Positions 7,378-7,536 of a DNA stretch of 64,000 nt are shown one piece after another. The number at the start of each line of letters is the position of its first letter. The stretch's first letter is position 1. Source of the stretch: Xylogone sp. PMI_703 (taxonomy: Eukaryota > Ascomycota > Leotiomycetes); contig JAJTUQ010000003.1 in the NCBI GenBank assembly GCA_021399445.1, positions 6,634,001 to 6,698,000 on the forward strand, written 5' to 3'. A program made the position numbers and the translations under genes. Below the pieces are notes generated by a model. The model had not been told where the DNA came from, did not search any database, and worked only from the letters and a program-made list of their open reading frames with translations.

Positions 7378-7385
7378 AAAAAAAA
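7378..7385 (-). terminator. RNA polymerase III terminator (T8)
   Basis: Eight consecutive T on the minus strand, beginning six bases after the tRNA discriminator base. A run of four or more T is the usual Pol III stop, so the tRNA gene keeps a complete Pol III architecture. Confidence 0.75.
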
Positions 7386-7391
7386 TATTGA

Positions 7392-7536
7392 TGGTCACTA
7401 CGAGGGTCGAACTCGCGACCTTGGCGTTATCATATTACAGATATTAGCACCACTGATAGACGGATTAGTATGTGCATTGGTCGACTTCTGGTGGAGTGAT
7501 GAATCTTACCGCTCTAACCAACTGAGCTAAGCGACC
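7392..7536 (-). tRNA. tRNA-Ile(AAU) with two introns
   Basis: The mature 74-nt molecule folds perfectly once two inserts are removed. Acceptor stem GGTCGCT/AGTGACC has one G-U pair; D-stem is GCTC/GAGC; anticodon stem is TGGTG/CGCCA; T-stem is GCGAG/CTCGT. The anticodon is AAT (plus-strand 7443-7445, read as IAU). Insert 1 is a 14-bp intron at the canonical 37/38 position (7428-7441). Insert 2 is 57 bp between nucleotides 26 and 27 (7453-7509) and looks spliceosomal. A-box (TAGCTCAGTTGG) and B-box (GAGTTCGACCC) are intact and a T8 terminator follows. Identity is certain; whether the precursor can be matured is open. Confidence 0.9.
7453..7509 (-). other. spliceosomal-type intron inside tRNA gene
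   Basis: The 57-bp insert begins GTAAGA, contains the branch-site consensus TACTAAT with its A about a dozen bases from the end, and finishes TATCAG. Precise GT-AG removal restores G26-T27 continuity and a perfect tRNA. Length and signals match the mRNA introns elsewhere in this window. No target-site duplication is visible. It is not at the 37/38 site used by eukaryotic tRNA introns. Confidence 0.8.

What the first reader, a model, noticed from the sequence alone, without database searches (positions are those of the whole stretch)
7392..7536. tRNA-Ile gene interrupted by a spliceosomal-type intron
Between tRNA nucleotides 26 and 27 sits a 57-bp insert beginning GTAAGA, carrying TACTAAT and ending CAG, exactly like mRNA introns of this genome. 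Its precise removal, plus the ordinary 14-bp intron at 37/38, yields a perfect tRNA-Ile(AAU). A-box, B-box and a T8 terminator are intact, so the gene looks like a live Pol III unit. Eukaryotic nuclear tRNA introns normally lie only at 37/38 and are cut by the tRNA endonuclease. mRNA-type introns are known in U6 snRNA genes of some fungi (established), so spliceosome-linked insertion into a second class of Pol III gene is credible. Either a tRNA is matured by two splicing machineries, or this is a freshly killed tRNA caught after intron transposition.
Basis: partly seen in the sequence, partly recalled or inferred. Interest (0 to 1): 0.93.

Follow-up and report, generated by a model that had tools for sequence, protein, structure and literature searches.

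The report
tRNA genes with messenger-RNA-type introns
In this fungus at least six genes for transfer RNAs are interrupted by introns of the kind normally found in messenger RNA, and the sequences suggest that the cell's messenger-RNA splicing machine cuts them out to make working tRNAs, something for which no earlier report was found in the searches made here.

Summary
On the minus strand (7536-7392) lies a tRNA-Ile(AAU) gene with a 57-nt GTAAGA...TACTAAT...CAG insert at 26/27 and an ordinary 14-nt intron at 37/38. It is not a one-off. Five tRNA-Ile(AAU) genes were found in the host genome (Xylogone sp. PMI_703 by protein match); four carry such an insert at 26/27, and two of these a second one in the T-loop. 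Both intact tRNA-Arg(UCU) genes found carry one at 25/26. The one U6 match over the family cut-off has one too.
The genes look alive. Mature Ile exons are 74/74 identical at four loci, while the 26/27 introns of the three that have one are 54-67% identical. The fifth copy has compensatory stem changes. Arg exons are 72/72 identical, introns 65%. Two uninterrupted Arg(UCU) relatives look degenerate, so AGA decoding may depend on spliced genes. Where T-loop introns split the B box, a B-box-like motif follows the terminator.
Best reading: Pol III tRNAs matured by the spliceosome plus, for Ile, the tRNA endonuclease. No RNA data or related genomes were available. No tRNA precedent appeared in the paper listings and passages seen.

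The parts
7510..7536 (-). tRNA-Ile(AAU) 5' exon, standard positions 1-26 (A box TAGCTCAGTTGG at 7529-7518)
7453..7509 (-). 57-nt spliceosomal-type intron at 26/27: GTAAGA..., TACTAAT at 7470-7464 (branch A 7465, 12 nt follow it), ends CAG
   Evidence: homologous inserts at three other Ile loci
7442..7452 (-). middle exon, positions 27-37, anticodon AAT
7428..7441 (-). ordinary 14-nt tRNA intron at 37/38
7392..7427 (-). 3' exon, positions 38-73, with intact B box GTTCGACCC at 7412-7404
7378..7385 (-). T8 run, Pol III-type terminator

Best explanation
This is a working nuclear tRNA-Ile(AAU) gene, one of at least six tRNA genes in this ascomycete that carry U2-type (mRNA-type) spliceosomal introns. 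Proposed order: Pol III transcribes the gene from its A and B boxes to the T-run; the spliceosome removes the 26/27 intron (and, in two sister copies, a second one at 57/58 in the T-loop) in the nucleus; the tRNA endonuclease and ligase remove the 37/38 intron; the mature tRNA decodes Ile codons. Two tRNA-Arg(UCU) genes work the same way with one intron at 25/26. Shown from sequence: positions, splice signals, exact restoration of tRNAs, recurrence, and a pattern of selection on exons and signals. Inferred: transcription by Pol III, removal by the spliceosome, and the order of steps.
For: Four of the five Ile(AAU) loci found have the insert at 26/27; two also have one at 57/58. Both intact Arg(UCU) loci found have one at 25/26. 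All 8 inserts are 51-57 nt, start GTWWG (7 of 8 GTAWG), end YAG, and have a branch-like A followed by 11-15 nt. Their removal gives a sequence ARAGORN accepts as a tRNA in 6 of 6 genes. Exons are 74/74 identical in the window copy, L073, L074 and the uninterrupted L059; the 26/27 introns of the three that have one are 54-67% identical and the Ile 100-nt flanks 45-57%, against 49.3 +/- 3.5% for shuffled introns. The fifth copy, L075, differs at 10 nt: seven lie in stems and leave all four affected pairs paired, three by double change, while it keeps a 26/27 intron 74.6% identical to the window's. Arg exons are 72/72 identical, introns 65%. The one U6 match over the cut-off has a 53-nt mRNA-type intron whose removal restores U6. 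S. pombe U6 is a Pol III transcript whose mRNA-type intron the spliceosome removes (PMC8917221, passage).
Against: No RNA evidence. One Ile copy (L059) lacks the insert, so Ile decoding does not strictly need the others. Gene conversion between copies could help keep exons identical. The T-loop introns split the internal B box in two copies, so ordinary Pol III transcription of those two needs another B box; a candidate was found for L073, and a weaker one for L074 that fell outside the two-mismatch scan. The branch sequences of the Arg introns are weaker (GGTAAC; TTTAAC or ACTAAA), and the Arg flanks are somewhat alike (61% and 56%), so the two Arg genes are less far apart than the Ile genes. 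L073 and L074 as they stand do not reach E 0.5 as tRNAs in Rfam; their tRNA nature rests on the joined exons. The tRNA survey of the genome is incomplete.
Confidence: 0.85

Rival explanations
1. The interrupted genes are dead or dying tRNA copies that took up introns; only uninterrupted copies (such as L059) make tRNA.
For: L059 is uninterrupted and has a perfect mature sequence. A review supposes that non-canonically interrupted nuclear tRNA genes, mostly one among many synonymous genes, are pseudogenes (PMC4090602, passage). The B box is split in two copies.
Against: Exons are unchanged over 74 nt in three interrupted copies whose introns and flanks have diverged. Compensatory stem changes in L075. 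Splice signals kept. For Arg(UCU) the two intact genes found are both interrupted and the two uninterrupted relatives are the degenerate ones.
Confidence: 0.08
2. The inserts are archaeal or algal-type non-canonical tRNA introns cut by the tRNA endonuclease at bulge-helix-bulge motifs.
For: Such introns exist in the Cyanidioschyzon nucleus and in algal nucleomorphs, and many of the Guillardia ones lack a defined motif (PMC3978253 and PMC4090602, passages). With a one-base shifted boundary one insert of 8 (L074, 26/27) can form 4 of 4 central pairs, three of them G-U by hand count.
Against: Central pairing at all equivalent boundaries was at most 3 of 4 in the other 7 inserts; at the stated GT-AG boundaries inner-helix pairing is 0 in all 8, though two outer pairs are possible at the four Ile 26/27 inserts. 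All 8 have GT...AG and a branch-like site instead.
Confidence: 0.04
3. The genes are spliced by the spliceosome but made by RNA polymerase II, at least the two copies whose B box is split.
For: The internal B box is broken at DNA level in L073 and L074. Spliceosomal splicing normally couples to Pol II (recalled).
Against: The five Ile and two Arg genes are followed by T-runs and keep an A box. The two split-B-box copies have TTCGAAAC 15-20 nt after the gene; the motif TTCRANNC was found within 100 nt downstream in 0 of the 5 other Ile/Arg genes and 1 of 49 ordinary tRNA loci. U6 here, also followed by a T-run, carries such an intron.
Confidence: 0.08

Closest known systems
mRNA-type introns of fungal U6 snRNA genes (S. 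pombe U6: PMC8917221, passages, citing Tani and Ohshima 1989 and 1991; Canzler 2016 seen only as a reference in PMC5832005, not held)
   Same: Spliceosomal-type intron in a T-run-ended, Pol III-type small RNA gene; this genome has one in U6 too.
   Different: Host RNA is a tRNA; two isotypes, three positions and six genes; two of the tRNA genes carry two such introns plus an intron at 37/38.
Spliceosomal introns in fungal U3 snoRNA genes (PMC5832005, passages)
   Same: Normal spliceosomal introns in a small structured RNA.
   Different: That paper (2017) states that U3 and U6 were so far the only small structured RNAs known to be often interrupted by an intron; tRNA occurs once in it, for concerted evolution.
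Spliceosomal introns in rDNA of ascomycetes and lichens (PMC8527467, passages, citing Bhattacharya 2000)
   Same: Spliceosomal introns in a structural RNA not made by Pol II; removed when placed in yeast rDNA.
   Different: Pol I transcript; no internal promoter or cloverleaf to disrupt.
Non-canonical tRNA introns of archaea, Cyanidioschyzon and nucleomorphs (PMC3978253, PMC4090602, passages)
   Same: Inserts outside 37/38, archaeal ones also at 25/26, nucleomorph ones in D and T arms.
   Different: Those are mostly tied to bulge-helix-bulge motifs and the endonuclease, though many Guillardia ones lack a defined motif; here there are GT-branch-AG signals and no complete motif.

Membership tests
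U2-type spliceosomal intron | GT 5' splice site with GTRWGN-like consensus | tested here: met
   8 of 8 tRNA inserts start GTWWG; 7 of 8 start GTAWG, L074's first is GTTAG
U2-type spliceosomal intron | Branch site about 10-25 nt from a YAG 3' end | tested here: met
   YTRAY with 11-15 nt after the A in 7 of 8; Arg L071 has only GGTAAC (13 nt) there; YAG in 8 of 8
U2-type spliceosomal intron | Length and look of this genome's mRNA introns | tested here: met
   51-57 nt against 51-88 nt for 14 candidate mRNA introns in the window, which were selected by the same consensus
U2-type spliceosomal intron | Exact removal restores the host RNA | tested here: met
   6 of 6 genes give a tRNA after removal; ARAGORN names one of them (L074) Ser because it misplaces the 37/38 intron
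U2-type spliceosomal intron | Lariat, and dependence on the spliceosome, in RNA | not testable with these tools
   no RNA data
Working Pol III tRNA gene | A box, B box, T-run | tested here: met
   window gene, L075, L071 and L072 have all three; in L073 and L074 the B box is split, with a B-box-like motif after the terminator
Working Pol III tRNA gene | Selection for the mature cloverleaf | tested here: met
   identical exons and compensatory stem changes
Working Pol III tRNA gene | Transcript seen | not testable with these tools
   no RNA data
Endonuclease (bulge-helix-bulge) tRNA intron | Two 3-nt bulges separated by a 4-bp helix, with flanking helices, at the junctions | tested here: not met
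   0 of 8 inserts have it at the GT-AG boundary; at shifted boundaries only the central helix was counted, 4 of 4 in one insert and at most 3 of 4 in seven

The most novel reading that the evidence does not exclude
An essential tRNA, Arg(UCU), can be made in this fungus only through the spliceosome, because every intact gene found for it carries a spliceosomal intron. tRNA supply would then be tied to spliceosome capacity. T-loop introns in two Ile genes cut the internal promoter and are tolerated because TFIIIC uses a B box placed after the terminator, as in yeast U6 (the yeast parallel is recalled).
Probability: 0.55. Interest if true: 0.95.

Novelty: new variant of a known kind. Interest (0 to 1): 0.88.

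Why it matters
Nuclear tRNA introns are described as lying exclusively at 37/38 (PMC3978253, passage) and are cut by a protein endonuclease. Genes that need both the spliceosome and the endonuclease would break that rule, show that the spliceosome can work on short, strongly folded Pol III transcripts other than U6, and make intron gain in tRNA directly testable. If Arg(UCU) depends on it, translation of AGA codons would hinge on the spliceosome. ARAGORN missed or misnamed five of the six interrupted genes (window, L072, L073, L074, L075), so more may be hidden in other genomes.

Tried and rejected
Single freak insertion or assembly error: rejected, seven other inserts in five other tRNA genes at separate places follow the same pattern. 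Donor gene for the insert: the whole gene as query matched only tRNA-Ile loci. Bulge-helix-bulge intron: not supported.

Other interrupted isotypes. A-box-plus-GT patterns gave 17 hits for TGGC with GTRAGT (2 real, both Arg; the other 15 read); 33 for TAGC with GTRAG (3 real, all Ile; 5 are Lys(CUU) genes where GTGAG is stem; 24 read and rejected, 1 not fetched); 44 for TGGT with GTRAG (none judged real; 1 candidate fetched and rejected, the others judged from the printed matches); 29 for TAGT with GTRAG (none; 1 fetched, an ordinary tRNA-Cys with an anticodon-loop intron, the others judged from print); 31 for TGGC with GTAWG (the 2 Arg only, judged from print). T-loop pattern: 17 hits, 2 real, 15 read. 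The tool's reversed-pattern controls gave similar numbers: 19, 19, 48, 53, 19 and 22 in the same order, so most hits are chance. The TAGC scan finds 3 of the 4 known Ile cases (it misses L074, GTTAG). L115/L133, two neighbouring pattern hits, are chance. These scans miss other start sequences and positions. The tRNA family search scored 63 of 1824 first-look candidates and did not list the window's own gene, so the tRNA list is incomplete; no Phe, Asp or Glu gene was called among the loci fetched.

SRP RNA as a precedent was checked and dropped: PMC4605306 argues against introns there (passages). A B box in or near U6: none within two mismatches in the stretches read. Papers: of 10 searches some aimed at rDNA, SRP, U6 or the organism rather than tRNA, and only part of the papers found was listed; in the listings and in passages of eight papers no report of spliceosomal introns in nuclear tRNA was seen. 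Most subscription papers and all preprints are outside that library; Canzler 2016 was not held.

Full report
Where it is. The window is contig C19:6634001-6698000 of a 50.1-Mb, 25-contig genome. A subtilase encoded in it is 100% identical (97% of the query) to a protein of Xylogone sp. PMI_703 on a contig of 8,055,043 bases, the length of C19; the next named relative is Scytalidium lignicola at 79%. So the host is a filamentous ascomycete.

What is there. Rfam sees one RNA gene over the gathering score in the window, a tRNA on the minus strand, 7536-7392. It consists of three exons, a 57-nt insert at 26/27 and a 14-nt intron at 37/38, followed by TCAATA and T8. The mature 74 nt pair in all four stems. 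The insert begins GTAAGA, has TACTAAT with 12 nt after the presumed branch A, and ends CAG. Such a set of signals arose in 6 of 200,000 shuffles of the insert.

It recurs. A search of the host genome with the whole gene gave seven matches at five loci, all tRNA-Ile(AAU); a 5'-half pattern found the same five loci and no other. Four of five have an insert at 26/27 (52-57 nt); the fifth, L059 (also L016), has only the 37/38 intron. Two of the four, L073 and L074 (also L017 and L019), have a second insert in the T-loop, GTTCG|GTATG...CTAAC...CAG|ACCC (51 and 53 nt). Two tRNA-Arg(UCU) genes, L071 and L072, have an insert between C25 and G26, GTAAGT...TAG (55 and 57 nt). That makes 6 interrupted genes and 8 inserts among 58 tRNA genes seen: 53 listed; the window gene, L073, L074 and L075; and L147. 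The list is incomplete: the family search scored 63 of 1824 candidates and did not list the window's own gene.

They look to be under selection. Among Ile genes the window copy, L073, L074 and L059 share all 74 mature bases, while the 26/27 introns of the three that have one are 54-67% identical, the 37/38 introns of the four 47-67%, and the 100-nt flanks of all five 45-57%; shuffled introns give 49.3 +/- 3.5%. The fifth copy, L075, has ten changes; seven are in stems and leave all four touched pairs paired, three through changes on both sides, while its 26/27 intron remains recognisably the same intron (74.6% to the window's). The two Arg genes share 72 of 72 mature bases with introns at 65% and flanks at 61% and 56%. 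Genes that no longer made tRNA would not be expected to keep this pattern. Conversion between copies is a partial alternative, but it would have to stop at each intron border.

Arg(UCU) may depend on splicing. A search with the spliced Arg(UCU) sequence found four loci: the two interrupted genes and two uninterrupted relatives, L142 and L143, whose matches start only at base 14 and are 90% and 86% identical. The relatives have damaged 5' halves and changed T arms (read by eye) and do not reach E 0.5 as tRNAs in Rfam; the twice-interrupted L073 and L074 do not either, in their case because of the inserts. A separate pattern for anticodon loop UCU plus T arm gave 62 hits (122 for the reversed control); only the two interrupted genes were judged tRNA-Arg(UCU). 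Four others were fetched and rejected, and the rest were judged from the printed match. AGA is used: 6 of 876 codons in two exon pieces of the subtilase and 2 of 751 in a catalase-peroxidase. If the survey is complete, AGA is read only by tRNA from interrupted genes.

U6 has such an intron too. The only U6 match over the family cut-off (73 bits; 47 of 3687 first-look candidates scored, three weaker hits below the cut-off) has 53 nt, GTAGGT...TGCTAAC...TTAG, whose removal joins CAATTT to GAAACG and restores the U6 sequence (the expected U6 sequence is recalled and agrees with Rfam's consensus from GAAACG on). Rfam's own match misplaces the 5' end inside this intron. The published S. [quoted passage not shown]

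Promoters. The 26/27 and 25/26 introns lie between A and B box and leave both whole. The T-loop introns split the B box. In both affected genes TTCGAAAC lies 15-20 nt after the gene, just behind the T-run: in L073 it is part of GGTTCGAAACT, in L074 of CCTTCGAAACT, one base off the minimal consensus and outside the two-mismatch list. The motif TTCRANNC occurs within 100 nt downstream in 0 of the 5 other Ile/Arg genes and 1 of 49 ordinary tRNA loci. The two genes may share ancestry, so this is one or two events. The B-box consensus, and that yeast U6 uses a B box after its terminator, are recalled, not looked up. No B box was found near U6 here.

Not an endonuclease intron, as far as tested. At the GT-AG boundaries inner-helix pairing next to the junctions is 0 in all 8 inserts. 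With equivalent shifted boundaries the central helix reaches 4 of 4 pairs in one insert, three of them G-U by hand count, and at most 3 of 4 in the other seven.

History, inferred. The 26/27 intron of L073 is closer to those of the window copy and L075 (67% and 69%) than to that of L074 (54%), yet L073 and L074 share the T-loop intron (69.6% identical). The simplest account is an ancestral Ile gene with both introns and later exact losses, including L059, which kept its 37/38 intron. Exact loss of only the spliceosomal introns would fit reverse transcription of a precursor from which the spliceosome had already removed its introns. This is a guess from few copies; L059 may equally never have had them.

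Known work. Reviews place nuclear tRNA introns exclusively or mostly at 37/38, with algal and nucleomorph exceptions linked to the endonuclease (PMC3978253, PMC4090602, passages). A 2017 paper names U3 and U6 as the only small structured RNAs so far known to be often interrupted (PMC5832005, passage). Spliceosomal introns occur in lichen rDNA and are removed in yeast (PMC8527467, passages). No tRNA case was seen in the listings of ten paper searches (some aimed at other subjects, some lists cut) or in the passages read, within an open-licence library only.

Limits. No RNA, no related genome and no promoter assay were available. The claim that the spliceosome removes these inserts rests on signals, exact restoration, the pattern of conservation and the U6 parallel.

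Noticed in passing
L150/L153, genome C20:2705780-2706060: The U6 snRNA gene has a 53-nt mRNA-type intron (CAATTT|GTAGGT...TTAG|GAAACG); Rfam's match starts wrongly inside it.
   Followed up: yes
L073 (C19:5689358-5689946) and L074 (C20:3998683-3999283), just after the T-run: B-box-like motif TTCGAAAC 15-20 nt after the two tRNA-Ile genes whose internal B box is split by a T-loop intron.
   Followed up: partly
L142 (C21:5038121-5038179 +) and L143 (C12:89379-89437 -): Two degenerate, uninterrupted tRNA-Arg(UCU) relatives sharing a run of seven G after the anticodon arm; their downstream flanks resemble, by eye, those of the intact genes.
   Followed up: partly
L047, L048, L049, L050, L053: Five tRNA-Lys(CUU) copies followed by the same CAATTCCC and, within the 25 bases printed, no clear T-run except in one (L048); possibly a repeat or an unusual unit.
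   Followed up: no
L071 and L072, within 50 nt upstream of the tRNAs: Both Arg(UCU) genes share TATTAATAAA upstream, a possible Pol III TATA element.
   Followed up: no
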